From NCBI GenBank assembly GCA_001769195.1, contig MEOK01000029.1:1-61923 (forward strand): a stretch of 61,923 nucleotides of DNA, read 5' to 3'. Source of the stretch: Bacteroidetes bacterium GWF2_40_14 (lineage in GTDB: Bacteria > Bacteroidota > Bacteroidia > Bacteroidales > UBA932). Below are positions 218-13,148 of the stretch, piece after piece. The translations under genes were made by a program, and so were the position numbers. The notes under the pieces were generated by a model. That model was given only the letters and a program-made list of their open reading frames with translations. It was not told the DNA's origin and searched no databases. The stretch's first letter is position 1; each line of letters begins with the position of its first letter.

Positions 218-622
218 TTAATATGGGCCAATTAATGTAGCAATTAGTGAATATTTAAAAATTCCGTCTAACGTTGCTAAACAATCGGAATAACTCGTTG
301 AATTTCCTCTATATACTTTTTTATCTTCTATCGTTAGTAGGCAATCTGAATAACTTGTGGAGTTGCCTTTGTAAACTTTATCCTTGCTTATTGTATATAT
401 ACAGTCTGAATAACTGGTAGAGTTTCCTTTATAAATTGTATCACCACAAATAGTGAATAAGCAGTCGGAATAGCTAGTGGAATTTCCTTTATAGATTTTG
501 TCTCCATTAATAGTAAATAAACAGTCTGAATAGCCTGTAGAATTTGCTTTGTAAACTTTATTCCCGTCTATCGTGAATATGCAGTCAGAATACCCGGTAG
601 AATTTCCTTTATATACCTTCAT
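218..622 (-). CDS. Six-repeat small protein (possible 4-fold beta-flower type)
   Basis: 134 residues built of six near-identical 20-residue repeats, each running roughly K-[VI]-Y-[KR]-[GA]-NST-x-YSDC-[LI]-x-T-I-x-x-x, followed by a short hydrophobic tail (KYSLIATLIGPY). There is no signal peptide. Every repeat carries one Cys in the YSDC motif. Such glycine/asparagine-rich short repeats are typical of small beta-propeller-like or beta-flower folds; RefSeq uses the name 4-fold beta flower for similar Bacteroidota proteins, which I recall but cannot check here. The gene lies between two attC-like elements, so it may be a captured cassette. Function unknown. The repeats also make it prone to copy-number change. 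Confidence 0.6.
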   Translation of the reverse strand: MKVYKGNSTGYSDCIFTIDGNKVYKANSTGYSDCLFTINGDKIYKGNSTSYSDCLFTICGDTIYKGNSTSYSDCIYTISKDKVYKGNSTSYSDCLLTIEDKKVYRGNSTSYSDCLATLDGIFKYSLIATLIGPY

Positions 623-697
623 TTTAGTAAAGTTTTTTAAGTGTTATATTTTGAAATTTATAATAAACCATTGTCAGCTTCAATTTGAATTGGTTTG

Positions 698-1429
698 TCA
701 ACAATTAACATAAATCGTCGGACTACCATTTGATTTATAATTGGATAATGATCCATTTATATATTTGCTTCTAATGTTTTCGTCCGCAATTTGTCCATTA
801 AACCCAACTCTCATTTTTTGGGTGCTTTCATCAAATGTATCGTACCATTCATTTACTTCATATACCTCTCTTGCAAGACCAAGATACGCAGCAATCACAT
901 ATTTTACATTAATAACCCTATTGCAACTTAGCCGCCACCTCTCGTGGACAATTCTATATAACTCTTCAGGAGGCATACCGTACCAATAAAGTTTATTTAC
1001 AATTATTATTAAAGCTTTTTCTTCGACATTTATAGTTTTTGCTTCATAGAATTGAACTATATCTGTCGCCGTTTTTAGTCCTCTGTCAAAACTATGATGT
1101 CCTTTTACTAGATTTTTTAATTTAAAATTGAACCCTTCACAGAGTCTTGAATAATCTATTAATGTAGATTCTATTTCAAGAGCATGAAATGGTTCAAGCC
1201 CATGTCTAATGATATAATGAATAGGCTCTTGACCATCATTCTTGATTTTTCGTATCTGGTCAAGTTTGTCCGTTTCAAAAGATGATTCTAATGCTAAATT
1301 CATGTGTGCAAAAACTCTGTTTCCACACCCCTTACCAATGTAAAAAACTTCATTGTTCCTTGGATCAATGAGGCAATATACATAGTGATTTAATCTCTCA
1401 ATAACAGCTCGTGAAAATTCTTTTGTCAT
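698..1429 (-). CDS. GIY-YIG nuclease-domain protein
   Basis: 243 residues. The N-terminal 100 residues carry a GIY-YIG domain: YVYCL (16-20) and FYIGKG (29-34), followed by a conserved Arg (R38) and a His (H42) in GCGNRVFAHM, with a Glu near 92 (EIESTLI) that fits the metal-binding Glu. This variant resembles the COG3680/LEM-3-like GIY-YIG group. The C-terminal 130 residues are of unknown fold. The family cuts DNA or acts as a structure-specific nuclease; the target here is unknown. It lies alone between attC-like copies A and B, consistent with a mobile cassette. Domain call is firm, function is not. Confidence 0.75.
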   Translation of the reverse strand: MTKEFSRAVIERLNHYVYCLIDPRNNEVFYIGKGCGNRVFAHMNLALESSFETDKLDQIRKIKNDGQEPIHYIIRHGLEPFHALEIESTLIDYSRLCEGFNFKLKNLVKGHHSFDRGLKTATDIVQFYEAKTINVEEKALIIIVNKLYWYGMPPEELYRIVHERWRLSCNRVINVKYVIAAYLGLAREVYEVNEWYDTFDESTQKMRVGFNGQIADENIRSKYINGSLSNYKSNGSPTIYVNC

Positions 1430-1455
1430 AATTTAAAGTCGTGGTTAGTGGCGGT

Positions 1456-1596
1456 GCCCATAACGTTCGGAACTATATGCAGTTGGGGATTGCGGGTTGC
1501 TTTCCTGTCGAACCCCGATACCGTTGTTGCGGGCTGTGGGCTTTGTTGTCCGCACCGAAACCCCAATTGACATATAGTTTTTGTTAGCGGCTGGGC
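1456..1596. repeat. attC-like palindromic element, copy B
   Basis: A 141-bp element with nested inverted arms: GCCCATAAC (1456-1464) against GTTAGCGGCTGGGC (1583-1596) with a bulge, CTATATG (1473-1479) against CATATAG (1571-1577), and TTGGGG (1483-1488) against CCCCAA (1561-1566). The outer TAAC/GTTA ends match the conserved core of integron attC sites (RYYYAAC and GTTRRRY) only loosely. It separates the GIY-YIG gene from the metallo-hydrolase pair. Confidence 0.6.
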
Positions 1597-1613
1597 TTCT
1601 TTTTTGATCTCCG

Positions 1614-2507
1614 TCAACTTGTCCGAACATGCAAGAAGTTTTTAAAGTTTGTATCTGATGAAGTTCCAAAACTCACGTATATTTCTCCGTCAGAATTTGT
1701 TGTTAAACATTTTCTTTCAGATGATGTTCCATTTCCTTTGAAAACTGTCCAACCTCGACTTTTTTGCGAGTATCTTCCATTAGCACTTGTGTCGCAAAAC
1801 CTGCCGTCTGAGACAACAGTAAGTCGAGGATTTACAAGATTGACAAAGTCATTGTTATAACCGTTTTCTCTTCCATGATGTGGTGCAAGTAGAATATCTG
1901 CATCTTTAACAGCTGTTTTGAAAGTATCCCGTTTCATAAGTTCTTCAAATGAACATGCCTCATTGTCGCCTGGAATTACAACTTTAATTCCTGCGTATTC
2001 AACAACGGTAACTATGCTGTGATTATTAAAATTATCATGTGAACAAGTTGTGGGAGTGAAACTTAAAATTTTCATTGCACCAAAATTATCTGGATTATCA
2101 GGGTCGTCCGTTCCTCCTCCAATAGGTTGATTATATCTGTCGTTTATATCGCAATACTTTTCAAATTTTGGTTTGTCCTGATTTCTAAATGTTATTACGT
2201 CATTTTCTTCTTGCATTACCTCAGCATTCGTAATTTGTTTTGGTCTATGCAATACTTTGGGTTTTAGAGCGTCAAAATTTAAAATATCATCTATGTGGTC
2301 TAAGTGAGGATGGGTTATAATTACATAGTCTAATTGCTGAACGCCATAATTGTTTTTTAGGTGTAGTAAGGGGCTAAATGATGTGTTCCTTCCTGAATAG
2401 TCACCAATTCCTAAATCAATGACAATGTGCTTATTGTTTGGAGTTTTAATGTATGTCGCATGCCCATGCTGAACATCCCAAAAAACCATTTCTACTTGTG
2501 AACTCAT
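1614..2507 (-). CDS. Metallo-beta-lactamase-fold hydrolase (ComEC-like soluble domain)
   Basis: I start the gene at the ATG at 2507 (MSSQVEM), 10 bp after the stop of the upstream gene, rather than at the longer start at 2540 that would overlap it; this gives 297 residues. The metal motif is H66-P-H68-L-D70-H71, followed by VIPGDNEA and LLAPHHGRENG, the order seen in the ComEC/Rec2-like branch of metallo-beta-lactamase hydrolases. No signal peptide or membrane segment is present, so it is likely cytosolic. The family hydrolyses phosphodiesters or related bonds; the substrate here is unknown. It is probably co-transcribed with the membrane protein upstream (2518-3009), suggesting a two-protein unit. 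Confidence 0.75.
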   Translation of the reverse strand: MSSQVEMVFWDVQHGHATYIKTPNNKHIVIDLGIGDYSGRNTSFSPLLHLKNNYGVQQLDYVIITHPHLDHIDDILNFDALKPKVLHRPKQITNAEVMQEENDVITFRNQDKPKFEKYCDINDRYNQPIGGGTDDPDNPDNFGAMKILSFTPTTCSHDNFNNHSIVTVVEYAGIKVVIPGDNEACSFEELMKRDTFKTAVKDADILLAPHHGRENGYNNDFVNLVNPRLTVVSDGRFCDTSANGRYSQKSRGWTVFKGNGTSSERKCLTTNSDGEIYVSFGTSSDTNFKNFLHVRTS

Positions 2508-2517
2508 ATTTTTTTGT

Positions 2518-3009
2518 TTAAGGATTATTGTTAGCATCAATTCTTTTTGTGATGTAGTTTGTCTGTTTACGGTAAGAATAGAGAAACATCAGAAGAATTA
2601 GAAATACAAGAATTAAGGTTGTTACATTTTGTGGAATGTCCCAACGAACTTGAAAATGGTTGTATAATTTTAGAAGTAATAAAATGACAAACATGGCGGT
2701 GATAGTCCTGTAAGTATTATTTACCTCTGAAAATAATTCAATCTTATCATCCTTTTTTGACGCATAAACAAAACTTCTATAGTCCGCAAATTTTAGAAAG
2801 GAAATCTTCTTCAAGATTGGCTCAATGAATAAAGAACCGAACCTACTAATAACCATTCCAATGAAGTAGTAAAGAAATGCTCCGATGAAATCATTGTCTT
2901 GAATAAAATTATAGTCCGTAAACTGCTTAGAAATACAAACAAAAAGAATACCCGGTAGTAAGTAGTTAAACAAGTTGTAAGAAGAAATTTTGTCAAGTAG
3001 CTCTTTCAT
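2518..3009 (-). CDS. Four-helix membrane protein paired with the metallo-hydrolase
   Basis: 163 residues with about four membrane segments: NLFNYLLPGILFVCI (13-27), GAFLYYFIGMVISRFG (about 43-58), TAMFVILLLLKLY (about 103-115) and VTTLILVFLILLMFLYSY (about 128-146). A charged stretch (KKDDKIELFSEVNNTYRT) lies between helices 2 and 3, and a basic tail follows the last helix. I do not recognise a named family, though the arrangement (LLPG motif, then RxGSLFIEP) looks conserved. It is 10 bp upstream of the metallo-hydrolase and likely forms an operon with it. A membrane protein next to a soluble enzyme is a common layout in bacterial defence and toxin modules, but that is inference only. Confidence 0.6.
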   Translation of the reverse strand: MKELLDKISSYNLFNYLLPGILFVCISKQFTDYNFIQDNDFIGAFLYYFIGMVISRFGSLFIEPILKKISFLKFADYRSFVYASKKDDKIELFSEVNNTYRTITAMFVILLLLKLYNHFQVRWDIPQNVTTLILVFLILLMFLYSYRKQTNYITKRIDANNNP

Positions 3010-3103
3010 GTCTGTTTATTTATATCGACAGTTTTCGTCAGTTTCTATCTTGAAGTCAGTTTGCACGGTCGCCATAGCCTTGCCGCTAACTTTCTTGTTA
3101 GTA

Positions 3104-3393
3104 TTATAAAATATACATCAAGCCTTCTGTACCCCGAGGTGTTGTTGTGCCTTTGTATATAATTCACCTAATAAATTGTCTGCTAAATGAGGTTAGAAAA
3201 CTAAAACTGACCTCTAATTCGGCTTTGCTCCCTCTGCAATCAAATCAAATCAATTCAAACCAACCTAATCCCCCATCGTAATCTTTTGGCTGTCAAATAT
3301 AAATAAAATATTAAACACTAATAAATGAAAATAATCTATTTTACACCAAAGTTTTCAACAAAATGGACCTTAATATATTCGTATAACTAATTC
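3104..3393. repeat. About 290-bp direct repeat, copy 1
   Basis: This block matches 11591-11884 in the same orientation with many small differences; shared blocks include TTTGTATATAATTC, TTCGGCTTTGCTCCC, CGTAATCTTTTGGC and TTTTACACCAAAGTTTTCAA. It contains no open frame. The two copies enclose about 8.2 kb that holds the 833-residue gene and the queC operon. An intergenic stretch from 3394 to 3734 follows, in which I see nothing recognisable. Confidence 0.75.
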
Positions 3394-3734
3394 TAGTGAT
3401 TTTTATAAGCTTCGACTGAGGGTGGCCCCACAATTTGATATGTTTAGTGAAGGGGCACAATGAAAACGGAATGGGGTTCAAGATGCTCAGGAATATTCAT
3501 CACTAACTACAATATATGTTTTATCGGATGCTTACAAACATTTTTAAAAAAAACATGTCACTTAACGACCGAGTTTACATATAGTTGGTGATAATATAGC
3601 CTCTTATTATCAACTGTGAAGTAAGCTTGCAAGCGATAGAAAAGCTCGTATAACAATCTAAATCCCATTTACATGTAAGCTTTTTTTACTGGCCGTATTT
3701 TTCATGATATCTAGTTTCACCATTTTAAAAAGCA

Positions 3735-6236
3735 CTACCATATCCCATTTGCTACAATTCTATTATTATGTCCTGAGCATGCAGGGCAATTTGATCCACA
3801 ATAATTACATTGCAGTCCAGTGTGATTTGGGTCATTTGGTCTGCAACTCTTGCAATCTCTGCTGTCAAGGGGTTCACTTGTTTTGTGTGACTCACATTTC
3901 CCGTTCAAGCAATGCGTAAAACGAATTATTTGCTTATCATTGCATTTGTCATTGATGCAATGAAATAGAGGTACTGCATAATATCCTAACGTGCTTGGTC
4001 GGAATGGTAAAGGTCTAAGAACTTCTTTACAACTTCTACAAAATAGATGTTCCACAATTTGGTTCATTCTATTTGCCCATCCAGCTAAAGTGGCAAGTGC
4101 AATTTTTTCTATTTTGATGTTTAAAGCTTCAGAAATTTCTGAAAGTGTCCATTGGTCATAAGGCTGATTTATATTAACTATATCATTTCTAGTAGCACAA
4201 TAGCTACCCTTACACCAGTAAAATTCATATTGTTCGGTTGATGGTCTATTTGTTTGTGAATCCCAGAGAGATTCTTTCTTCCACGGACGCCCCTCACAAT
4301 AGCAACACAATGTGTCTTTTGTATAAGTTGACACCTCTCCTGCTACATACCAACGCCTAACCCCATTTTGTTGCCAAAGTTCCGCATTATAATATTTGCG
4401 CCCGTCGCAGAGACTTAAGATATTGCTGATTGTGAAATTGTCAAGGAAAGATTTAGATTCAAAGTTTTGGCTCGATAAAACTTCAAAATGTTTTTTAAAA
4501 ACTTCGCTTAACTTTCCTAGTAGTATTTTCTCTGTATAATTTGATTCTTGGATAAATGCTTTTATTAGTAGTGCACTGATTTCTGTCCATTGGAAAGAAT
4601 TTAATATTTCTAAAAGCTGACTTTTACTTAACCTTTGTTTGTGTAATTGAAAAATTAAAAACTTAACCGAAAGGCATTGAACAATTCCTTTATTGATTTG
4701 TAAGAATTGTTTGCAATCCTCTGTCAGATTGAAGTTTGATGAAGAATTCAAATATAGAAGAAAGGCAGTTAAGGGCTTGTTTGATATTCTTACTTCTTCA
4801 GATATATTGTAGTCTGAATATTCTTCAACGAAGTTTACAATTTCAGTTTCCGTTTTGAAAATAATGTTCTGATATGCAAATTTTTGTGAATTGAGGTGTT
4901 TTGTAAGAATGCCTAGTTCTAAGATTGCAATTGGATATTTTATTGAAAGCTGCTTATAGAATTTATCAATGAAGTGTATTGACAATACATGATTATTTTT
5001 CTCTTTTAAGAAACTAATTATTCTTAAGTAATCAGGACTTGAATTTTCTCTTTCAATAGAATAATATTCGTCAATAAGAACTTTAGCAAGTTCATTTTTA
5101 GGTTCACAGGATTCGATTAGTTTAATAATATTCGAAGATGATATTTCATTTATGTTATTTGATATGACTTTTCTAAAAGTATCCATTTGACAGTTATCGG
5201 TCAATTGTGAAATTAGAACTGTAAAAACAGAATCTTTTAAAGTTTTTTCAGATAAAAGTTCCAATAATTGATTTTCATCAATAATATGGTAATCCTTTAA
5301 TTCCATAAATATATTAATCAGCTCGTTTGCTGAAATACGTTCTCTCTCGGAAAGCAAATTATTTCTTAGCTTTTTAATTAAATTGTCTTCAATTGGATTT
5401 ACCGGAATAAGCGATTTTAACTTATCAACATAATTATAGACATTGAAGGAAAATAGATTTATAGTTTGAATAGCGATTCCTGAAACTTTAAAAACAGAAT
5501 ATATTTTCCAGATTTCTTCAAAACTCCATTCAATATCCTTTAAAATGTTTATAAAACTTTGGGGTATTTGCTCTTCAGTAAGTCTTTTATTTCTGATTGT
5601 TTCCGTTAAATTGAGGATATCATTCTTGTTTTGTGCTGTCCAGTTGATTAATATGTTATTAAGAAGTGAATTATTAAATGATTTTTTGAGAAAATTTATT
5701 TTTTCATCATATTTTAAAGGAGAAATATATTCTGAAATGTAATTATCAATAAATTGTTCATCGGCACCAATCTTAAGTAATAAACCCCAAGCATCTGCAT
5801 TATTTTCTCTTTGTAATATTTTAATAACTAATGCTTTGTCTTCTAAATCTAGGTACTTGTATTCATCCTTTACTGTATTATAAATTGCATTTTCAAGTTC
5901 GTGTATATCAATTAATTCTGCAAATTGGGAGACTGTTTTTAAATTAATTTCACTAATCGATTTTACATCGGTAGCAAAGAAACCTTTATAACCCTTATTT
6001 AGATAAAGTGTTACTGTTTCTCCATTATAAAGTTGCTTTTCTGTTGATAACGCACTTTCTGATACGTGCACTTTATCTGCTTTAACAACCTTTGCACACC
6101 TTATTTCAGAAATAATACCGAATTTATTTTTGTAGTAGTCAAAGAACAAAAGTTTGCCAATCGCAGCAACTGGTTGAATTATGTCAATCCTACTATCATA
6201 TTCTCTTTGTATGCTATTAATTCTCTTATTGTCCAT
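3735..6236 (-). CDS. Large protein with cold-shock-like N terminus and zinc-ribbon C terminus
   Basis: 833 residues. Residues about 27-95 match a cold-shock/S1-like OB fold: GKLLFFDYYKNKFGII, then VHVSESAL, NGETVTLYL and KGFFATDV, the order of a CSD nucleic-acid-binding domain. Residues 100-640 are mostly helical and unrecognised, possibly repeat-like. The last 190 residues hold at least eight Cys pairs (C645/C647, C675/C680, C733/C736, C760/C765, C776/C781, C795/C798, C810/C813, C817/C820), which suggests several zinc ribbons. There is no signal peptide or nuclease motif I can name. The layout fits a nucleic-acid-binding scaffold or sensor. It stands alone, between a direct repeat and a small mobile-like element, and its AT-rich composition is typical of the island. 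Confidence 0.7.
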   Translation of the reverse strand: MDNKRINSIQREYDSRIDIIQPVAAIGKLLFFDYYKNKFGIISEIRCAKVVKADKVHVSESALSTEKQLYNGETVTLYLNKGYKGFFATDVKSISEINLKTVSQFAELIDIHELENAIYNTVKDEYKYLDLEDKALVIKILQRENNADAWGLLLKIGADEQFIDNYISEYISPLKYDEKINFLKKSFNNSLLNNILINWTAQNKNDILNLTETIRNKRLTEEQIPQSFINILKDIEWSFEEIWKIYSVFKVSGIAIQTINLFSFNVYNYVDKLKSLIPVNPIEDNLIKKLRNNLLSERERISANELINIFMELKDYHIIDENQLLELLSEKTLKDSVFTVLISQLTDNCQMDTFRKVISNNINEISSSNIIKLIESCEPKNELAKVLIDEYYSIERENSSPDYLRIISFLKEKNNHVLSIHFIDKFYKQLSIKYPIAILELGILTKHLNSQKFAYQNIIFKTETEIVNFVEEYSDYNISEEVRISNKPLTAFLLYLNSSSNFNLTEDCKQFLQINKGIVQCLSVKFLIFQLHKQRLSKSQLLEILNSFQWTEISALLIKAFIQESNYTEKILLGKLSEVFKKHFEVLSSQNFESKSFLDNFTISNILSLCDGRKYYNAELWQQNGVRRWYVAGEVSTYTKDTLCCYCEGRPWKKESLWDSQTNRPSTEQYEFYWCKGSYCATRNDIVNINQPYDQWTLSEISEALNIKIEKIALATLAGWANRMNQIVEHLFCRSCKEVLRPLPFRPSTLGYYAVPLFHCINDKCNDKQIIRFTHCLNGKCESHKTSEPLDSRDCKSCRPNDPNHTGLQCNYCGSNCPACSGHNNRIVANGIW

Positions 6237-6285
6237 TTAATTATTCTTCTTTTCTTTAATGGCTCGTACTGTCCTAAAATGATTG

Positions 6286-6340
6286 GTAACGGTGGGCATG
6301 AGTCCAGTTGGGGAATTCGAAACACTTTCCTTACCAGGCT
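6286..6340. repeat. Remnant of attC-like element
   Basis: The segment GGTAACGGTGGGCATG through CAGTTGGGGAATTCG and CACTTTCCTTACC resembles the left half of copy B (TAACG, CAGTTGGGGATTGCG, GCTTTCCTG). The right half is missing; the small element starting at 6404 may have replaced it. It suggests the 833-residue gene was also once bounded by such a site. Confidence 0.35.
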
Positions 6341-6403
6341 TACTGCCTTGGTAAAAATACGATCCTATATATTTAACGCTTACATCCCAATTAAATTTAT
6401 GTT

Positions 6404-6773
6404 ATGTTGAACTAAATCCCTCCCGGGATAGTTTTTCAGCAAATAAAATTAAGCATAAATTCTGATTTGATGAACTTTACGGCAGTACAAACTTAAAAAG
6501 TAATGCCGTATGAGAAAAAAATCAGAATCAACCATTATTGAGAGGGCAATGGAATGCGTTCCAGGGTTCGACCGTGTCTTCCAGAGGCTTCATCAGCAGG
6601 TGGTTTTACGGGGTTAAAGCAATAAATCCTGTTCTTTAGGATCAGTTAAAAAAACTGCCTAGATCTTAAAAATTGAGGAATGAGAGTCTATCTTGGCAAA
6701 TAAAATATAATACCGGAAGACAGAAAAACGTTGATAAGTCCATAGTAAAATTGCCTAGGATGTAGTTCAACAT
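6404..6773. mobile_element. Small element bounded by 16-bp inverted repeats
   Basis: The ends ATGTTGAACTAAATCC (6404-6419) and GGATGTAGTTCAACAT (6758-6773) are inverted copies with one mismatch in 16. The 370 bp between them hold a truncated 35-codon frame at 6510-6617 and no full gene. This is the form of a decayed insertion sequence or MITE. The right end lies about 70 bp beyond the end of the membrane gene at 6845. Confidence 0.55.
6510..6617 (+). pseudogene. Truncated N-terminal fragment, recombinase-like
   Basis: An ATG-started frame of 35 codons (MRKKSESTIIERAMECVPGF..., ending QQVVLRG then TAA). It resembles, from memory, the N-terminal start of tyrosine-recombinase/integrase-type proteins that travel with IS91-like elements in Bacteroidota, which normally continue for some 300 residues. 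Here a stop ends it inside the element flanked by 16-bp inverted repeats. It is too short to work as a recombinase. The family assignment is tentative. Confidence 0.35.
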
Positions 6774-6844
6774 GGACTACAGGCTGGGCACTGCATGCCG
6801 CATAAAGTTCTATTTATTACCGCAAGTAGTTTAAGAATTTCTTA

Positions 6845-7462
6845 TTAGTATGGTTTACTATTTTCAGAATACGTGACTTTTAAATAACCATTTGCGATCT
6901 TAAAATAAAATAAATTCTGAAGTAATATGCTAAATATGAAAGTGCCACAAAAAATAAAAAAACTTTTCCATGTTATTATATCTTCTAAAAGATCAAACAA
7001 AAGAAGTATGCCCAAATACAAAATAAATCCATTAATAACTTGAATAACAAACTGCCACCAATAGGTGCCAGAGAATAGCCTTGCTTTTGGTAAAGTTTTA
7101 TCTGATAACTGAACAATATTCCACATAGTATAATCTAATTCAATGAAATACTTTCTTATATTATTAATAATTGCAAAATGTTCAAGTTGAACCTTTCTAA
7201 TTTTTGCTAAAACACAAATAAATAAATGGCCTAAAATTGCTACAATTAACATTATTATTGATACAATCTCATTCAAGTTAGAAATATTAATGGATTCATC
7301 CTTCCCTTTTATAACAAGAAGAAAACCTGCTATTGAAATACCAGCAATTGAAATAAAGAAACTTGTAATCTTATTTCGTAAAGAATCCATCTGATAAGTA
7401 AGTTGGACAGCTGTTTTATATTCTTCTAAAAGAAAAGTTTCCTTTTTATTCAAATCACTCAT
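6845..7462 (-). CDS. Four-helix membrane protein, last gene of the queC operon
   Basis: 205 residues. A charged N terminus (MSDLNKKETFLLEEYKTA) leads into four hydrophobic segments: SFFISIAGISIAGFLLVI (about 35-52), IVSIIMLIVAILGHLFICVLA (about 66-86), FVIQVINGFILYLGILLLF (about 138-156) and SFFIFCGTFIFSILLQNLFYF (about 167-187). The two helical hairpins are separated by about 50 polar residues. No enzyme motif is seen. It begins 69 bp after the deoxyribosyltransferase stop, with no clear terminator between them, so it is probably the fifth gene of the operon. Small multi-helix proteins often act as membrane-disrupting effectors in abortive-infection systems; that role here is inference. Confidence 0.55.
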   Translation of the reverse strand: MSDLNKKETFLLEEYKTAVQLTYQMDSLRNKITSFFISIAGISIAGFLLVIKGKDESINISNLNEIVSIIMLIVAILGHLFICVLAKIRKVQLEHFAIINNIRKYFIELDYTMWNIVQLSDKTLPKARLFSGTYWWQFVIQVINGFILYLGILLLFDLLEDIITWKSFFIFCGTFIFSILLQNLFYFKIANGYLKVTYSENSKPY

Positions 7463-7531
7463 ACTGCTTCTAATTTATCAAGTTGTTAATTTTACTGCTA
7501 TTTTTTTTATTGAAAGAACACTTTACAGATA

Positions 7532-8002
7532 TTAAACTAGAGTTCTGTCTTTGTATGTATTTTTTGCATAATGATCATTTTTTAGTGTACATATATATTT
7601 TATAAGTTCATTCCTATTATTAAATATTTGTTTTAATGCACAATCAATCATAATATTGTTACCAAACTTATCTTGTGTTCTATGATCAGTTTTATACCCT
7701 ATACATATTTTCCCTTTTGCAAAACCATAACCTAATTCAAAACACATTCCTTCGTCTAAAACTCGACCATCTAACAAACAAAGTATAATATCCGAATTAT
7801 CAATAGCTTCAATATCCTTTTTGAAAATGTAACTTCTAGAATCCTGGATAGAAAATCCTTGTTCTATATATTCGTAAAATAAACCCCCGTCACGTTGAGG
7901 AAGATAAACTTTAAAATCTTCTTTTTCAAGTGAGATTGTGAATTCATGATTTCTAGATCTTTCTATATCATTAAAGAGTGGTGCGGCAATATATATCATC
8001 AT
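7532..8002 (-). CDS. Nucleoside 2-deoxyribosyltransferase family protein
   Basis: 156 residues, near the family's usual length of 140-160. The N terminus MIYIAAPLFND and the motif LLDGR-x-x-D-E-G-M-C-F-E-L-G-Y-G (76-92) match the NDT superfamily; E89 fits the nucleophilic Glu and D78-G79 the ribose-binding loop. NDTs swap bases between deoxynucleosides or hydrolyse nucleotides to free bases; DNPH1-like and defence-linked relatives do the latter. The ATG follows the stop of the SIR2/kinase gene by one base, so translation is probably coupled. Neighbouring queC and the kinase-like domain point to nucleobase or nucleotide chemistry. The exact substrate is unknown. Confidence 0.8.
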   Translation of the reverse strand: MMIYIAAPLFNDIERSRNHEFTISLEKEDFKVYLPQRDGGLFYEYIEQGFSIQDSRSYIFKKDIEAIDNSDIILCLLDGRVLDEGMCFELGYGFAKGKICIGYKTDHRTQDKFGNNIMIDCALKQIFNNRNELIKYICTLKNDHYAKNTYKDRTLV

Positions 8003-8003
8003 T

Positions 8004-9626
8004 TTAACACTTTAAATATTTATCAATCACGGAATGGAGATCATCTGCATAATACTTCTCCAAATGAATTATCCTCGCAACTCGTCTTACTACTTCAAAA
8101 ACGGATAAATCACTTGTGTCAATAATTTTTAGGTGCTCCAATGAGTCAAAAATTTTTATAAATTTCTTATACATTTTTTCGATATCAGTAGATGTATATT
8201 GGTCTTCTGTTTTTTGCCTCATTCTAACTCTTCTAGCAATAACCTCATTATCACCATGGAGTAGAATTATACAACCTTTTTCTATTCTAAATTGGCTTGC
8301 ACCTCTGGTAATTTGGTTATTTAGGTCTTCCGCTTTCTCGCCCCATTCGCTTTCATCTTTAAAAGTAAAAGGATCTAAAGGTGTTCTATCAATTACATTG
8401 AAACCATATCTGCTATTTCTAATGTTCTTATTTTTTTTATAAAATTGTGATCCTATCCATTTATCAATAAACTTTGTTTCTTCGGGTAATAGATTATGTT
8501 CAGGAACAGCTAATAATGGATGTTTAGGGTCAGGCCATTCCGAAAATGTACTCATGTTTCTAAAATATGATAACGTTGTAGTTTTTCCACTACCAACCGG
8601 ACCAGTAATATAATAAATGTACTTTGTGTCAATTTTGTTTAAAATAGCTTCTTCCTCAAAGTCTGAATCTCCCATCTGCAATAATTCTCCAAATTCCTTA
8701 ATTTCTTTATCATTAAAAAAAAGAGTAATTAAATTATATAATTCAAAGTTAGATTCGATAATTGCTCTTTTTTGTTCATCAGAAATGCTTTCAGAATCTT
8801 TCGTATAAGCAATATAATAGTGAAAATGACCAGGGCTAATTTGAGAATTTTGTCTAAGTAAATGCTTCAAAGTACTATCTTCAAGTGATAAACCTAAGAA
8901 TAAGCACGTGTTTTTTGATAAGTGATGAAGTAAAGTAGAGTAATGACCTGACATCGTTGCAATAAGTTGGTCAGCAAATGAATCTTCAGAAAAAACAATA
9001 GTTTCGCTTGGCCCATCAATTAATTCTTTTGGTAAAAAACCATTGGGATGGTAAATAACTCCATTATTAGATTGAAATTGAAGTCTTGCATCCCAGACTG
9101 TTTCGTAACCCTTTATTCCAATTCTTTTTTCATCATCACTCCTTCTATCTGAAATAATAAGTTGCAAAGTATTGTCAAAATTATAATTAATAGTTAGAGA
9201 AGATCTTTTAATAATGTCAATATAAGCATCTAAGTAAGGATGTACACCTTTTTTTAGATATTCTGGCTTGAAATTTTTCCACAATTCTTGGTGTATAATA
9301 TCTTTCCATCTGTGATAAATTAATTTTTCGAATTCTTTTGAATTAATACTGTCACCCTCTTTCTCTTTTTCTTTTGCCTTAAAATGCTCATAAAGCATCT
9401 GTGTTACAGAAGCTTGTGGGCTTTCATTTTTTTTATAATTTAATATGTCTTCTCCATTAATCTCAGGGTTTTTAGAAATATTCTCAATTAATTCAGCCCA
9501 ATTGGGAAGAAGAAAAGGTTTACTAATTCCTGATCCTATAACTAGTCCAAATCTTCCAGAATTAAGTTGTTGTCTTATGTGTACTAATGGTTTAGCACAC
9601 TCTTTTAATATCGCACTTCTACACAT
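8004..9626 (-). CDS. SIR2-like domain fused to a P-loop nucleoside/nucleotide-kinase-like domain
   Basis: 540 residues. Residues about 20-310 form a SIR2-like fold: G31-SGIS, the TINYNFD segment (145-151), YHPNG (192-196), FSEDSFADQL (212-221) and FLGLSLEDSTLKHLL (243-257). N147 and H193 are the likely NAD-site residues by analogy with defence SIR2 NADases. Residues about 335-540 hold a Walker A GPVGSGKT (342-349), a DRTPLDPFTF segment (413-422) and an Arg-rich RRVRMR lid (465-470), the layout of deoxynucleoside or thymidylate kinases. I know no named system with this fusion. The start overlaps the upstream stop as TAATG and the stop is one base from the next gene. An effector-plus-sensor reading is inference. 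Confidence 0.75.
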   Translation of the reverse strand: MCRSAILKECAKPLVHIRQQLNSGRFGLVIGSGISKPFLLPNWAELIENISKNPEINGEDILNYKKNESPQASVTQMLYEHFKAKEKEKEGDSINSKEFEKLIYHRWKDIIHQELWKNFKPEYLKKGVHPYLDAYIDIIKRSSLTINYNFDNTLQLIISDRRSDDEKRIGIKGYETVWDARLQFQSNNGVIYHPNGFLPKELIDGPSETIVFSEDSFADQLIATMSGHYSTLLHHLSKNTCLFLGLSLEDSTLKHLLRQNSQISPGHFHYYIAYTKDSESISDEQKRAIIESNFELYNLITLFFNDKEIKEFGELLQMGDSDFEEEAILNKIDTKYIYYITGPVGSGKTTTLSYFRNMSTFSEWPDPKHPLLAVPEHNLLPEETKFIDKWIGSQFYKKNKNIRNSRYGFNVIDRTPLDPFTFKDESEWGEKAEDLNNQITRGASQFRIEKGCIILLHGDNEVIARRVRMRQKTEDQYTSTDIEKMYKKFIKIFDSLEHLKIIDTSDLSVFEVVRRVARIIHLEKYYADDLHSVIDKYLKC

Positions 9627-10819
9627 TAGTTGAATAATTTAAGTTGAGAATTATTTTTTTGCATTTGGTGCCAACTTTGTGGAACAATTGATTTACTAGT
9701 ATTTGCCTTAAGACCGATTGTTACATCCACATAGTGATCAAAAATATCCAGAAATTTTGGGTCATAACTTAAATCCACATAATTAACATTCCACAATGAT
9801 GATTCTTTAATAAAACCATTGTGATTTTGCAAGCCAAGCCATTGAGAACTTGCATTATCAATTTTGTAATTAAATGTAGATAAAAGAGCAATTAAGTTTT
9901 TTTCCAAATATGATCTATCACTAAATTTTGTTGGTTTATCATCAATATTTAACCAAAGAATTTTCATATTCCCAATATATTTGGAAACTTGCTTTTCTAA
10001 GTTTTCTTCCTTCAGTTTAATTTCTTTACTTGCATTTTGATCTATGCTCCAAGTTGGAATATTCAAATTTTCCTTGTCAATAATAGAATTGCCTACGTGC
10101 AATCGAAATATTGAACCTCGATGATTACCTTTTAACGCAGCTCCACCACGATGAGTACGTAATCTATTCCAAAGTGTCGAAGATGAACCTTCTGATACTG
10201 CATGAGTGCCAACTCGAACAATTCTTTCAACAAAAGGAGAAGACATTCTAAATTCATTTTCTTCAAAAAACAAATACAGGCCTCTTTTGGGTAATATCTT
10301 TGAACCATCAATTTCATTGAGTTTAGGAAAAATTTCAAGACCCGTTCTTAATTTATTTACTGAATCATATAACCGATCTAAGTGTTGAAGTCTTTCTGAA
10401 TAAGTTGAAAAGGATTTATACCATTGCAGTTGTTTGCCAATTGAATATTTATTTAAGGGGGTTTGAAAATAAATATTTTTCTCTTTTAATTTCTCCTCTA
10501 AAAATTCTCTATATTTTTCTCCTGCTAAGAAGACAATCCTATCATTTTTTTCAATTTTTAAATCAAGTTTTTGAAATACTTTATTAGCCCACTCAAGTCT
10601 TTCTTGTTTTGATTTATTATTTAAAGTTTCTTCATAAGGTTCAATAAAATCACTGGGTTCCAATAGTCCATATTTAGCAGAAAGAATGAAATATTTATCT
10701 AGTCGTTTTTCCGCATATTTTTTTGAATTAATAAATAATGGAGATATATAAAGATTTTTAGCCACAGATGGAAAATTCTGTTTAGCACTTACGCAAGATA
10801 TTAATCCAATCAACCCCAT
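9626..10819 (-). CDS. DUF6884 domain fused to a GIY-YIG-like domain
   Basis: 397 residues. Residues 1-140 match the DUF6884 pattern: LISCVSAKQ, NLYISPLF, FILSAKYGLLEP, IEPYEETL, FLAGEKYREFLEEKL and IGKQLQWY. Residues about 165-290 look like a GIY-YIG superfamily domain: RGLYLFFEENE, ERIVRVGTHA, STLWNRLRTHRGG and NHRGSIFRLHVG. The remaining 100 residues are unassigned. DUF6884 occurs with deazapurine and modification genes, but its chemistry is not known to me. The gene overlaps queC by one base (TAATG) and the SIR2 gene in the same way, so the products are probably made in balanced amounts. A nucleobase-dependent nuclease or transferase is a fair guess. Confidence 0.7.
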   Translation of the reverse strand: MGLIGLISCVSAKQNFPSVAKNLYISPLFINSKKYAEKRLDKYFILSAKYGLLEPSDFIEPYEETLNNKSKQERLEWANKVFQKLDLKIEKNDRIVFLAGEKYREFLEEKLKEKNIYFQTPLNKYSIGKQLQWYKSFSTYSERLQHLDRLYDSVNKLRTGLEIFPKLNEIDGSKILPKRGLYLFFEENEFRMSSPFVERIVRVGTHAVSEGSSSTLWNRLRTHRGGAALKGNHRGSIFRLHVGNSIIDKENLNIPTWSIDQNASKEIKLKEENLEKQVSKYIGNMKILWLNIDDKPTKFSDRSYLEKNLIALLSTFNYKIDNASSQWLGLQNHNGFIKESSLWNVNYVDLSYDPKFLDIFDHYVDVTIGLKANTSKSIVPQSWHQMQKNNSQLKLFN

Positions 10820-11499
10820 TATCTAAAACTTAAATCTGAAAATTTATTATCTGCCGCTTTTACATCTTTATTTATATTATTCCAAGCATAATTGTGTAAA
10901 ATGCAGGCATCACATTCATTGCATGGTTGTATCCCTTCTTCTGAAACCTTTGGGCTATAACAGCTCCATGTACCACCTTTTCTAATACCCAACCGATAAG
11001 CTTCTTGTGCAATTTCTGGTTTTGTTAAGTTGATTAGTGATGTTATTATTCTTGGGCCATTAGGATATCCATGTTTTAACATTTCAATAAAAGAATCAAT
11101 AAACTCAGGACGACAGTCTGGATAACCAGAGAAATCAAGTGAATTAACTCCAATCCAAACTTCACTAGCTTTGACTCCAGCCGCCTCAGCACACGCTAAA
11201 GCTAAGAAAACAATATTTCTTCCTTCCAGGAAAGCAGGTGAGACATCATTTCTTATCACATCCACACTTCTTCCTTTAGGTATGATTTTGAAGGGTTTAT
11301 CCCATTCAAGACTTATAATCTTTCTTTCAATATTTAATGTTTTGCATTGTGCATTTGCAAATTGATTTTCAATTTTATGTTTTTGATTATAATCAATTCC
11401 TAGACTAATAACTTCTTTTCCTTGTTCAATAGCTTGCAATAAACATACAGTAGAATCTAGACCTCCACTATGTAAAATAACAACCTTATTACTTTTCAT
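10819..11499 (-). CDS. queC: 7-cyano-7-deazaguanine synthase (QueC) homologue
   Basis: 226 residues, canonical QueC length. The PP-loop ATPase motif is at 10-17 (H-SGGLDST). LDFSGYPDCRPEF (121-133) is the family's substrate region. Four zinc cysteines are C180, C193, C196 and C199 (WSCY and CNECDAC). QueC converts 7-carboxy-7-deazaguanine to preQ0 using ATP and ammonia in the cytosol. It leads a five-gene operon that lacks queD and queE, so it is unlikely to be a plain queuosine locus. QueC-like proteins are known in type IV CBASS and Qat defence systems, so a role in an immune module is plausible; all catalytic residues look intact. Confidence 0.9.
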   Translation of the reverse strand: MKSNKVVILHSGGLDSTVCLLQAIEQGKEVISLGIDYNQKHKIENQFANAQCKTLNIERKIISLEWDKPFKIIPKGRSVDVIRNDVSPAFLEGRNIVFLALACAEAAGVKASEVWIGVNSLDFSGYPDCRPEFIDSFIEMLKHGYPNGPRIITSLINLTKPEIAQEAYRLGIRKGGTWSCYSPKVSEEGIQPCNECDACILHNYAWNNINKDVKAADNKFSDLSFR

Positions 11500-11524
11500 A
11501 TTTTGAGTATTAATTTAATAATTT

Positions 11525-11532
11525 CAAATTTA
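11525..11532 (-). promoter_or_regulatory. -7 box candidate for the queC operon
   Basis: On the minus strand TAAATTTG fits the Bacteroidota -7 consensus TAnnTTTG and lies 25 bp before the queC ATG. No convincing -33 TTTG is found at the usual spacing, so confidence is limited. Confidence 0.4.
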
Positions 11533-11590
11533 GTTTTTATTTCAATATTTTATTGTACAAATCTTTCTTATACTATTTGCGGTAGCCTTC

Positions 11591-11884
11591 TTATATGTAT
11601 ATAAAATATAGACCAAGCCCTTTCTACCCCGAGGCTTTATGTTGCTTTTGTATATAATTCCCCTAATAAATCTTCTGCTAAATATGGCTCGAAATCTAAA
11701 GCTGGTCTCGTATTCGGCTTTGCTCCCGCCGCAATCAAATTCAATTCAAACCAACCGAATCCCCTCTCGTAATCTTTTGGCATTCAAATATAAATAAAAT
11801 ATTATTCACTAATAGTTGAAAATAATATATTTTACACCAAAGTTTTCAACAATATGGCTTTTAAGATATTCGTATGACTAATTA
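11591..11884. repeat. About 290-bp direct repeat, copy 2
   Basis: Same orientation as 3104-3393 and clearly related along its full length, with scattered substitutions and small indels. It ends where the palindromic array begins. Together the copies look like the footprint of an insertion or of recombination that brought in the DNA between them. Confidence 0.75.
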
Positions 11885-11939
11885 GCTGGATAGAGTCTGC
11901 GAATGAAGAAAGTCACATAGCCAGAATTTTTTAGTGTAT

Positions 11940-13030
11940 AAAACTAAGCGCAGACAAGGCAATGGGGGCATCTCAGCCGGAGGGAGCGCAAAAACTTGGG
12001 ATGAAAACACATTCAGAATTGTTTAGTGCATTAACTAAGTGCAGACAAGGCAAATGGGGGCATCTCAGCCGGAGGGAGAGAAACGACTGAGGATGGAAAA
12101 TGCCCATAATACTTTGTCGACACTTATCCGCACATGCACTAAAAGAAGAATATCAGCCAGAAGGAGAGAACCGACTGAAGATGTAAACACAGCGAGAATG
12201 ATTTAGTAAATAGAACAGTAGTAGTGACTAAGCCATGGGGGCATCTCAGCCGGAGTGAAAGAGTCGACTGAAGACAGAACGACGGTTTGATGTATTTAGT
12301 GCATCGAACCCCAGCGCCGACATGGTTAAAGCAAAAGTGTGGAAAAAGTAGATCTAGGTGTGGAATTTGAGGATGCTTGCAAGGGAGGGTTTGGGCACCC
12401 ACTAAGTGAACGGAGCGTAAGAAAATCGAGCGCAGACCCGCGAGCTAATCTGCAAAAGCATAATATCGGGGCTGCCTTTGATTTTTAGCGGAAAACAATC
12501 CAGACTTTACCAGGAAGAGAGAGCCGACTGAAGACAGAAACACAGTGATAGTTTTTCAGTGCATAAAACTAAGTGCCGACAAAGCAATTGGGGCATCTCA
12601 GCCGGAAGGAGCCCTACTACCGAAGATAGAAACACAGTGTTAGTTATTTAGTGCATAAACCCAAAGCGCAGACAAGGCAAATAGGGGCGTCTCAGCCGGA
12701 AGGAGTACAAGCAACTGAGGATGAAAATACCGTAATAATTATTAGTGCATAAACCCAAAGTGCAGACAAGGCAAATGGGGGCATCTCAGCCGGAGGGAGT
12801 GAAACGACTGAGGATGGAAAATGCCCCCATTGCCTTGTCTGCACTTATCCGCACATGCACTAAAAAAGAGAATATCAGCCGGAAGAGTTTGTGCGACTGA
12901 GGATGGGAAATGCCCCCATTGCCTTGTCTGCACTTATCCGCACATGCACTAAAAAAAAGAATATCAGCCGGATAGAGTTTGCGCGACTGAGGATGGAAAA
13001 TGCCCCAATTGTTTTGTCGGCGTTCCAAGG
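11940..13030. repeat. Array of palindromic repeats with CTCAGCCGGA core
   Basis: About nine diverged copies of a unit with core [AG]TCTCAGCCGGA or ATATCAGCCGGA, beginning near 11970, 12062, 12149, 12243, 12595, 12690, 12783, 12872 and 12962. Typical parts in order are TTAGTGCATAAA, GTGCAGACAAGGCAA, GGGGGCATCTCAGCCGGA and CGACTGAGGATGGAAAA. Some units face each other: GTGCAGACAAGGCAAATGGG (from 12759) pairs with CCCATTGCCTTGTCTGCAC (12826-12844), making a hairpin of more than 20 bp. The unit is larger and less regular than a CRISPR repeat. No protein gene is credible here. Confidence 0.75.
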
Positions 13031-13074: not shown

Positions 13075-13148
13075 TGGAGGTACCCAGCAGATTCGGACTG
13101 CTGTAGACGGTTTTGCAGACCGTTGCCTAACCACTCGGCCAGGGTACC
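13075..13148 (-). tRNA. tRNA-Cys(GCA)
   Basis: Minus-strand cloverleaf: acceptor stem GGTACCC/GGGTACC, D arm GGCCGAGTGGTTAGGC, anticodon loop CTGCAAA with anticodon GCA between ACGGT and ACCGT, and T arm CAGCAGTCCGAATCTGCTG. Discriminator U73 is the known cysteine identity base. The 3' CCA is encoded (13075-13077). A terminator follows. The accessory island begins directly beyond its 3' end, where integrating elements commonly insert. Confidence 0.93.

What the first reader, a model, noticed from the sequence alone, without database searches (positions are those of the whole stretch)
6845..11499. Five-gene operon joining QueC, DUF6884/GIY-YIG, SIR2/kinase, deoxyribosyltransferase and a membrane protein
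Seen: the first four genes have 1-bp overlaps or a 1-bp gap, and the fifth follows after 69 bp. Known: QueC makes preQ0; QueC-like proteins take part in type IV CBASS and Qat; SIR2 domains deplete NAD in several defence systems; NDT-fold enzymes act on nucleotides. Inferred: the operon makes or senses a modified nucleobase (deazaguanine) and triggers NAD loss or membrane damage on infection. It lacks a CD-NTase, QatA/B/D or Dpd gene, so it fits no named system I know.
Basis: partly seen in the sequence, partly recalled or inferred. Interest (0 to 1): 0.92.

Follow-up and report, generated by a model that had tools for sequence, protein, structure and literature searches.

The report
Deazaguanine-linked SIR2 defence-like operon
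Four genes that travel together across distant bacteria join an enzyme that normally makes a rare guanine-like base to a protein predicted to destroy the cell's NAD, which points to an unnamed anti-virus system that uses this base; nothing has been tested in the laboratory.

Summary
In detail: five minus-strand genes at 6845-11499, the first four with 1-bp overlaps or a 1-bp gap. QueC - "M57" (DUF6884 plus a second domain) - SIR2/kinase - NDT is a conserved unit. A scan seeded only with the SIR2/kinase gave 33 loci. Eight carry the same four genes in the same order; a ninth seems split by a contig break; a viral-collection contig adds one. The membrane gene is not part of the unit. The operon QueCs form one clade, support 0.999. 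Eight of nine other hosts also have an ordinary QueC. The window's host has none; the best QueC-like hit in 24 congeners is 6.9e-5. In two Clostridia the unit lacks QueC but has a transporter gene of the queuosine-precursor family inside it. This favours free preQ0, not Cap9-type protein tagging, as the needed product. Key SIR2, kinase, NDT and DUF6884 residues are kept. Best reading: an unnamed preQ0-using, NAD-depleting anti-phage system. The GIY-YIG label was not supported. No structure could be predicted.

The parts
10819..11499 (-). QueC-family protein, 226 aa; operon-specific QueC clade; keeps SGGLDST, YxQxHxxE, RN, SGYPDC and the Zn-type CxxCxxC region
   Evidence: 5.9e-50; TIGR00364 148.7 bits against cut-off 150.3; tree and alignment
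9626..10819 (-). M57 fusion, 397 aa: DUF6884 (residues 4-135; invariant C9xxxK13 and S47-A-K) plus PDC-M57B domain (142-368); GIY-YIG-like only by motif (GLY, RVGTH, LWxRLxTH, E)
   Evidence: (PDC-M57A 3.5e-43, PDC-M57B 1.9e-76); no profile support for GIY-YIG
8004..9626 (-). SIR2 domain fused to a P-loop (deoxy)nucleotide-kinase-like domain, 540 aa; G31, G33, N149, D151, H193 and Walker A G342, G347, K348 invariant in 31 of 31
   Evidence: ThsA 4e-9, KomC 1.1e-6; thymidylate kinase PHROG 2.4e-7
7532..8002 (-). Nucleoside 2-deoxyribosyltransferase (NDT), 156 aa; candidate nucleophile E89 and D63, D83, N116 invariant in 29 of 29
   Evidence: (7o62 2e-57)
6845..7462 (-). Membrane protein, 205 aa, several hydrophobic segments; neighbour, not part of the conserved unit
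   Evidence: 8xMP, below cut-off; one distant relative, L033

Best explanation
A horizontally moving four-gene anti-phage module, QueC - M57 - SIR2/kinase - NDT, that needs free 7-cyano-7-deazaguanine (preQ0). QueC makes preQ0 from the host's 7-carboxy-7-deazaguanine (the window's host has QueD- and QueE-type genes); in two Clostridial versions a transporter gene stands in for QueC. The NDT and the kinase half of the SIR2 protein would put a deazaguanine base on a deoxyribose and phosphorylate it, or handle such a nucleotide. The DUF6884 (DpdC/YaaA-type) domain would act on or read the deazaguanine, in nucleotide or in DNA. When infection disturbs this, the SIR2 domain degrades NAD and stops the cell. 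Shown here: gene order, conservation, a separate QueC clade, retained active-site residues, a transporter gene in place of QueC, defence-gene neighbours. Inferred: preQ0 as the real product, the nucleotide step, the trigger, NAD loss, phage defence.
For: Same four genes and order in 8 of 33 loci found by SIR2/kinase only, plus L040/L093, on two contigs, and L072. Operon-type QueC is tied to M57: 8 of 16 loci with M57, 0 of 17 without it in the fetched stretch, Fisher p 0.0009 (loci not all independent; the Cap9-like QueC of L032 not counted). Operon QueC clade 0.999. A second, ordinary QueC in 8 of 9 other host genomes, so the operon copy is not simply housekeeping. QueC replaced by PF02592 (Vut_1; YhhQ, the preQ0 transporter, is COG1738 in PMC6884629; that PF02592 is the same family is recalled) between NDT and M57 in L047 and L057 (62% identical); it is the only Vut_1 match in those two genomes, whose QueC hits are weak and partial. 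QueE and QueD types in the window's host: (the QueE hit is under the model's cut-off, as are those of 9 of the 10 control genomes that ring). NDT relatives directly after a QueD-QueE-x-QueC series in two actinobacterial plasmids; in the NDT tree these two sit next to the NDTs of L047, L051 and L057 (no support values printed). DUF6884 given for dpdC (PMC11888242, passages); CxxxK and LSAxxG motifs proposed as active site (PMC11701544, passages). Catalytic residues kept. Defence neighbours: window; L031, L034, L037, L052.
Against: SIR2/kinase occurs without M57 and QueC in the fetched stretch in 16 of 33 loci, 13 of them with NDT (a few stretches are cut short upstream), so the effector pair can do without them, or uses the host's preQ0. 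L051's genome has M57, SIR2/kinase and NDT but only weak QueC hits (best 2.1e-5, in a 390-aa frame), no Vut_1 and no PTPS (a MAG). L038's genome (SIR2/kinase and NDT) has no QueC better than 7e-4; Vut_1 was not tested there. L056's has neither (no NDT seen there either). The NDTs of four-gene loci do not form one clade. M57 also occurs without the rest: of 13 viral-collection M57 loci one has the other genes (several short contigs), and the 4 other same-phylum genomes with M57B showed no QueC, SIR2/kinase or NDT in the stretches fetched (L015, L017, L018; L016, a 3.6-kb contig, by reading its ORF list). Ordinary QueC is common, so its presence in hosts proves little. No phage, NAD or mass-spectrometry data. 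No structure model: structure prediction was busy every time.
Confidence: 0.5

Rival explanations
1. QueC does not make free preQ0 but joins 7-carboxy-7-deazaguanine to the N terminus of a partner (M57, SIR2/kinase or NDT), as Cap9 does in type IV CBASS and as is proposed for QatC; the tagged partner is the immune switch.
For: Both well-studied defence QueCs are linked to protein modification (PMC13279940, PMC13329287, passages). The operon QueC keeps the RN and YPDC residues that Cap9 also keeps (the Cap9 motifs are). In the nine M57s of the window and its eight single-contig relatives, the Met just before the DUF6884 core is followed by Ala or Gly.
Against: No conserved MGGS/MGTS-type start on M57, SIR2/kinase or NDT of the QueC-bearing loci (true start codons are not known); the second residue of M57 is mostly Ala, and His in L072. 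Two Clostridial versions carry a transporter gene in place of QueC. The operon QueC is ordinary in length and scores higher with 13 ordinary QueCs (72-134 bits) than with the Cap9-like protein of L032 (47 bits).
Confidence: 0.2
2. Two independent systems that like to sit together: an M57 (+QueC) deazaguanine module and a SIR2/kinase-NDT abortive-infection pair.
For: Each half occurs alone: SIR2/kinase with NDT but without M57 in 13 of 33 loci (L040 left out); M57 without a SIR2/kinase match in the Deinococcus, Halorientalis and Rhodococcus plasmid stretches. In Rhizobium the pair follows a KAP NTPase instead. NDTs of four-gene loci are scattered in the NDT tree.
Against: In the four-gene loci the genes abut or overlap in fixed order across distant lineages, and the Clostridial version mixes the halves (NDT - Vut_1 - M57 - SIR2/kinase).
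Confidence: 0.17
3. A modification-dependent nuclease: M57 reads 7-deazaguanine in phage DNA and cuts it, with SIR2/kinase-NDT as backup; QueC tunes host deazaguanine pools.
For: Phages carry deazaguanines in DNA (PMC6884629, passages); DUF6884 is the domain given for dpdC; 311 of 50,697 phage records have a QueC-like match.
Against: A nuclease domain is not established; carrying a QueC of one's own is odd for a system that attacks deazaguanine DNA.
Confidence: 0.08
4. A small biosynthetic cluster for a deazaguanine nucleoside, or queuosine metabolism, and not defence.
For: NDT follows QueC in actinobacterial plasmid clusters; the window's host has no other QueC.
Against: The unit includes a SIR2 protein with kept catalytic residues (the loci were found through this protein, so its presence in each is by construction), has defence neighbours in the window and in 4 of 6 loci looked at, and 8 of 9 other hosts have a second, ordinary QueC.
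Confidence: 0.05

Closest known systems
Type IV CBASS (Cap9 QueC, Cap10 TGT-like)
   Same: A QueC-family protein in an immune operon; RN and YPDC residues kept.
   Different: No CD-NTase, TGT-like or OGG match among the ten window proteins scanned; the QueC is not Cap9-like (PADLOC model PDLC00911 'QueC' 66.9 bits against 250 for the Cap9-like protein of L032); SIR2 and NDT instead. In L032 what looks like a type IV CBASS set lies just beyond SIR2/kinase and M57 (its TGT and OGG matches are under the Pfam cut-offs).
qatABCD
   Same: A QueC-family protein in a defence operon.
   Different: QatC models only 19.4 and 22.4 bits; no KAP NTPase or TatD match among the ten proteins scanned.
Dpd DNA deazapurine islands (dpdA-K)
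   Same: A DUF6884 domain and preQ0 chemistry; a YhhQ gene can neighbour dpd genes (PMC11888242, passages).
   Different: No DpdA match; the DpdC model matches only at 16.8 bits; SIR2 and NDT are not among the dpd genes named in the passages read.
Kongming (KomABC)
   Same: A SIR2 NADase tied to a non-standard deoxynucleotide (dITP; PMC12948488, PMC12774641, passages); the SIR2/kinase profile finds KomC (1.1e-6).
   Different: No deaminase or HAM1-type match among the ten proteins; here the nucleotide genes are NDT and a fused kinase, with QueC and DUF6884.
Thoeris ThsA
   Same: Best PDB match of the SIR2 half (6lhx, 4e-9).
   Different: A kinase-like domain instead of SLOG or Macro, and no TIR match.
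PADLOC candidate PDC-M57
   Same: Both M57A and M57B models match the 397-aa protein.
   Different: The output names only these two models for it; the QueC, SIR2/kinase and NDT of the window matched no PDC-M57 model.

Membership tests
Type IV CBASS | CD-NTase in the operon | tested here: not met
   No SMODS/nucleotidyltransferase Pfam match in the ten proteins of window 218-11499; the rest of the window was not scanned.
Type IV CBASS | Cap9-type QueC | tested here: not met
   27.9% identity, 47 bits to the Cap9-like protein of L032; PDB Cap9 1.7e-7 against QueC 4.4e-26.
qatABCD | QatC with QatA/B/D | tested here: not met
   QatC 19.4 (PADLOC) and 22.4 bits (NCBIfam, cut-off 280); no KAP or TatD match in the ten proteins.
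Dpd island | DpdA transglycosylase | tested here: not met
   No TGT/DpdA match in the ten proteins; the genome's one TGT match is on another contig.
Canonical queuosine QueC | Equivalog score and placement with ordinary QueC | tested here: not met
   TIGR00364 148.7 against 150.3 bits, only just under; operon QueCs are one clade, support 0.999, set among ordinary QueCs.
Canonical queuosine QueC | Makes preQ0 from CDG | not testable with these tools
   Motifs retained; activity needs an assay.
SIR2 NAD-depletion defence | SIR2 catalytic residues | tested here: met
   G31, G33, N149, D151, H193 in 31 of 31 aligned; their roles are recalled from the SIR2 family.
SIR2 NAD-depletion defence | NAD loss on infection | not testable with these tools
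   Needs an experiment.
Kongming | KomA deaminase and KomB beside the SIR2 protein | tested here: not met
   No deaminase or HAM1-type match among the ten proteins; that KomA is a deaminase and KomB HAM1-like is recalled.
Thoeris | TIR-domain ThsB and SLOG/Macro sensor | tested here: not met
   No TIR, SLOG or Macro Pfam match in the ten proteins.
NDT family | Family match and catalytic Glu/Asp | tested here: met
   7o62 2e-57; E89, D63, D83, N116 in 29 of 29.
GIY-YIG nuclease | Profile match | tested here: inconclusive
   No GIY-YIG Pfam match at E<=10 in any of 10 sequences (one had two weak unrelated matches); none in the PDB search; motif and conserved Y, R, H, E present.
PDC-M57 (PADLOC candidate) | M57A and M57B | tested here: met
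   3.5e-43 and 1.9e-76.

The most novel reading that the evidence does not exclude
A new immune chemistry: preQ0 made or imported by the operon is turned by NDT and the fused kinase into a 7-deazaguanine deoxynucleotide that works as (or is the precursor of) the signal controlling a SIR2 NADase, with the DUF6884 domain adjusting or reading the nitrile group.
Probability: 0.27. Interest if true: 0.93.

Novelty: new variant of a known kind. Interest (0 to 1): 0.74.

Why it matters
QueC-family proteins are a current theme in immunity, yet those followed so far (Cap9, and by proposal QatC) point to tagging proteins. Here an almost canonical QueC, which a family-wide study could easily have left in its dominant 'canonical' cluster (my inference from PMC13329287, passages read), sits in a mobile operon with a SIR2 protein, and a transporter gene can take its place. 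If confirmed, a free deazaguanine base would be an ingredient of NAD-depleting immunity. It would also give DUF6884/M57, a candidate without a mechanism, a testable substrate.

Tried and rejected
Rejected: five-gene unit (membrane gene not conserved). Rejected: ordinary queuosine QueC. Rejected: Dpd, Qat, CBASS, Kongming, Thoeris membership (table). GIY-YIG could not be confirmed (the hhalign test used only three GIY-type sequences and has little power).

Led nowhere: first genome-contig scan with P0002 alone (no relative); first viral scan with P0003 alone (no relative); P0003 against phages (none) and against 395 same-phylum genomes (5 with a match: the window's own and 4 weak ones). The search for DpdC relatives to build a DpdC profile gave 3 weak hits in 395 genomes and was dropped. 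PDC-M57 is named in no paper of the library. The library lacks most subscription papers, so 'unnamed' means not found in these searches and not in the PADLOC models scanned. Of the ten papers opened (which is nine) I saw passages only.

Correction found on checking: nine papers were opened, as the call list shows; PMC11996544 was seen only in the listing.

Alignments left out some rows: A4 (SIR2/kinase, 31 rows) omits L035, L057, L058, L024, L025; A3 (M57, 14 rows) omits split or later-found copies (L032, L035, L058, L072, L093); the QueC tree omits L072 and L093. The 13 ordinary QueCs in the tree are those of 13 of the 17 genomes; the other four (G000, G396, G407, G408) had none.
Full report
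THE OBSERVATION. They lie in a stretch of low G+C (0.29-0.34 per 2 kb over window 2001-12000, 0.36 for 1-2000, against 0.37-0.45 in the rest). A tRNA-Cys gene stands at 13075-13148, near where G+C rises. Other genes of that stretch match defence models: PDC-M48A/B and PD-T4-3. So the operon is probably in an acquired, defence-rich stretch.

IT IS A CONSERVED UNIT OF FOUR. I searched the genome-contig collection (84,980 species by its description) with a profile of the SIR2/kinase protein only (alignment A1: window, Rhizobium, Eleftheria) and obtained 33 loci. Scanning the ORFs of these loci: 8 of 33 have QueC, M57, SIR2/kinase and NDT in the window's order on one strand (L030, L031, L033, L034, L036, L037, L043, L052). 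By record title they come from two Desulfobacterales MAGs, Desulforapulum, a Geobacter MAG, an Ectothiorhodospiraceae MAG, Bradyrhizobium, a Sphingomonadales MAG and a Sedimentisphaerales MAG (a planctomycete order, recalled). L030 and L036 are close relatives (81-88% DNA identity over the matching pieces); of the other pairs compared, two gave no blastn match and one a short one. In a ninth, L040, the SIR2/kinase begins at a contig end, and the same genome has operon-type QueC and M57 at the end of another contig; most simply this is one operon cut by the assembly. A tenth, L072, comes from the viral collection. Gaps between the genes are short or negative, up to 104 bp in L030 and L036. Eight of 33 have M57 but no operon-type QueC (L032, L035, L044, L045, L047, L051, L057, L058); 17 have no M57 in the fetched stretch, L040 among them. 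Operon-type QueC goes with M57: 8 of 16 against 0 of 17 (Fisher p 0.0009; loci not fully independent). NDT sits near the SIR2/kinase in 28 of 33 (counted; M57, with or without Vut_1, lies between them in three). The membrane gene has one distant relative, in L033, on the other side of the unit (blastp only).

THE QUEC IS NOT THE HOSTS' ORDINARY ONE. Of nine other host genomes with the full unit (L040's included), eight also have an ordinary QueC with a far better family score (6.8e-67 to 1.8e-78 against 6.0e-51 to 3.2e-54); the MAG of L030 does not. In a tree of window + 8 operon QueCs, 13 ordinary QueCs and one Cap9-like protein, the operon QueCs form one clade with support 0.999, set among the ordinary ones. 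They share 46-63% identity with the window's QueC; the ordinary QueCs share 27-37%. Conserved features are SGG(L/M)DST, a YxQ...E motif in which the histidine varies, RN, SGYPDC and a WSCY...CxxCDACxLHxxAW tail. The window's own genome has only this QueC, and in 24 congeners, several of them 73-90% complete, the best QueC-like hit is 6.9e-5. The window's genome does have one TGT, a QueD-type gene and a QueE-type gene with the CxxxCxxC motif (6.9e-19, under the model's curated cut-off). So CDG can probably be made in this host.

WHAT POINTS TO FREE preQ0. In two Clostridia (L047, L057) the unit reads NDT - Vut_1 - M57 - SIR2/kinase, with PF02592 matches of 2.1e-50 and 8.5e-51. YhhQ, the E. coli preQ0 transporter, is a COG1738 protein (reference in PMC6884629, seen in passages); that PF02592 is this family is recalled. 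The two transporters are 62% identical. Each is the only Vut_1 match in its genome, and the QueC hits of both genomes are weak and partial (best 1.5e-7 and 2.4e-4). A gene for import standing where a gene for synthesis stands elsewhere suggests that both serve one free small molecule. Further support: NDTs 41-45% identical to the window's follow directly on a QueD-QueE-hypothetical-QueC series in Streptosporangium and Amycolatopsis plasmids, and in the NDT tree these two sit next to the NDTs of L047, L051 and L057 (no support values printed). DUF6884 is the domain given for dpdC (PMC11888242, passages). Against it: L051's genome shows only weak QueC hits (best 2.1e-5 in a 390-aa frame), no Vut_1 and no PTPS (a MAG); L038's and L056's genomes lack QueC too (Vut_1 not tested for L038, absent for L056).

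THE OTHER PROTEINS. SIR2/kinase: the SIR2 half matches ThsA (4e-9) and KomC (1.1e-6) in the PDB by profile; the second half matches a thymidylate kinase PHROG (2.4e-7) and dNK weakly. The residues G31, G33, N149, D151, H193 and the Walker A G342, G347, K348 are invariant in 31 of 31. NDT: profile match to 7o62, 2e-57, named as Desulfotalea psychrophila NDT in PMC9570332 (passages); E89, D63 and D83 probably correspond to E88, D62 and D82 of the purine-preferring CtNDT (PMC10913048, passages; not aligned here). The NDTs of the four-gene loci do not form one clade. M57: DUF6884 with CxxxK and LSAxxG motifs, distantly related to YaaA, proposed to bind nucleic acid (PMC11701544, passages); our profile finds YaaA at 0.0019. 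The second domain has no known fold by the searches made.

MECHANISM. I favour a NAD-depleting system in which preQ0 is made or imported and then handled by NDT, kinase and DUF6884 to control the SIR2 domain. The nearest working parallel is Kongming, where a non-standard deoxynucleotide, dITP, switches on a SIR2 NADase (PMC12948488, PMC12774641, passages). The order of steps and the trigger are guesses. Protein tagging as by Cap9 remains possible: the M57 of the window and its eight single-contig relatives has Ala or Gly after the Met that precedes the DUF6884 core, but L072 has His there, and no conserved MGGS/MGTS start was seen. Because SIR2/kinase-NDT pairs occur without M57 and QueC, and once with a KAP NTPase (Rhizobium), I see that pair as the core and M57 +/- QueC as an added sensing or fuelling part.

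DEFENCE SETTING. I chose ten neighbour proteins from six four-gene loci; five of the ten, from four of the six loci, match PADLOC models: LmuB beside L031, type III R-M genes beside L034 (two proteins), IetS beside L037, a type III methyltransferase fragment beside L052; the five others (three of L033, one of L043, one of L052) match none. L030, L036, L040 and L072 were not looked at in this way. L049 (pair only) has a PglX/type IIG-like gene directly upstream. In L032 what looks like a type IV CBASS set (Cap9-like QueC, weak TGT, SMODS, weak OGG) lies just beyond SIR2/kinase and M57.

LIMITS. No structure model could be made. No experiment exists in the material seen. Most relatives come from MAGs. 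The literature search covers only the open library.

Noticed in passing
window 1614-3009 (-): An MBL-fold protein and a small protein match the PADLOC candidate pair PDC-M48B (6.7e-147) and PDC-M48A (1.1e-66), overlapping genes.
   Followed up: no
window 698-1429 (-): A GIY-YIG (LEM-3-like) protein matching PADLOC PD-T4-3 (1.1e-46).
   Followed up: no
window 3735-6236 (-): An 833-aa protein with a cysteine-rich C terminus and no match in Pfam, PADLOC or NCBIfam at E<=0.1, between M48 and the operon.
   Followed up: no
window 13075-13148 (-): tRNA-Cys near the point where G+C rises from about 0.32 to 0.45, perhaps the insertion point of the defence stretch.
   Followed up: partly
window genome and 24 congeners: The host has TGT, QueD- and QueE-type genes, and 22 of 24 congeners a QueE-like match (E<=0.001, none over the curated cut-off), but none of the 24 an ordinary QueC; the enzyme for CDG to preQ0 may be missing or of another kind in this genus.
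   Followed up: partly
L090 3237-6477, L092 3009-6453: Actinobacterial plasmids with QueD, QueE, a hypothetical protein, QueC and then an NDT, followed by sugar-phosphate and HAD genes: perhaps a deazaguanine nucleoside cluster.
   Followed up: no
L032 1008-8162: SIR2/kinase and split M57A/M57B directly before what looks like a type IV CBASS set in a contig binned as Lokiarchaeota; a 90% identical copy of the first part is binned as Bathyarchaeota (L035), so the binning is doubtful.
   Followed up: partly
L030 6016-8390, L036 6999-9630: A queuosine salvage protein (PF10343, tested in L030; relative in L036 by clustering) and a second TGT-family gene downstream of NDT in both Desulfobacterales loci.
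   Followed up: no
L024 5348-11096: Rhizobium sp. CC1099 plasmid: a 1212-aa KAP NTPase gene overlaps the SIR2/kinase gene, followed by NDT, another partner for the pair.
   Followed up: no
window 218-622 (-): A 134-aa repeat protein of the 6-fold beta flower type (PF21786).
   Followed up: no
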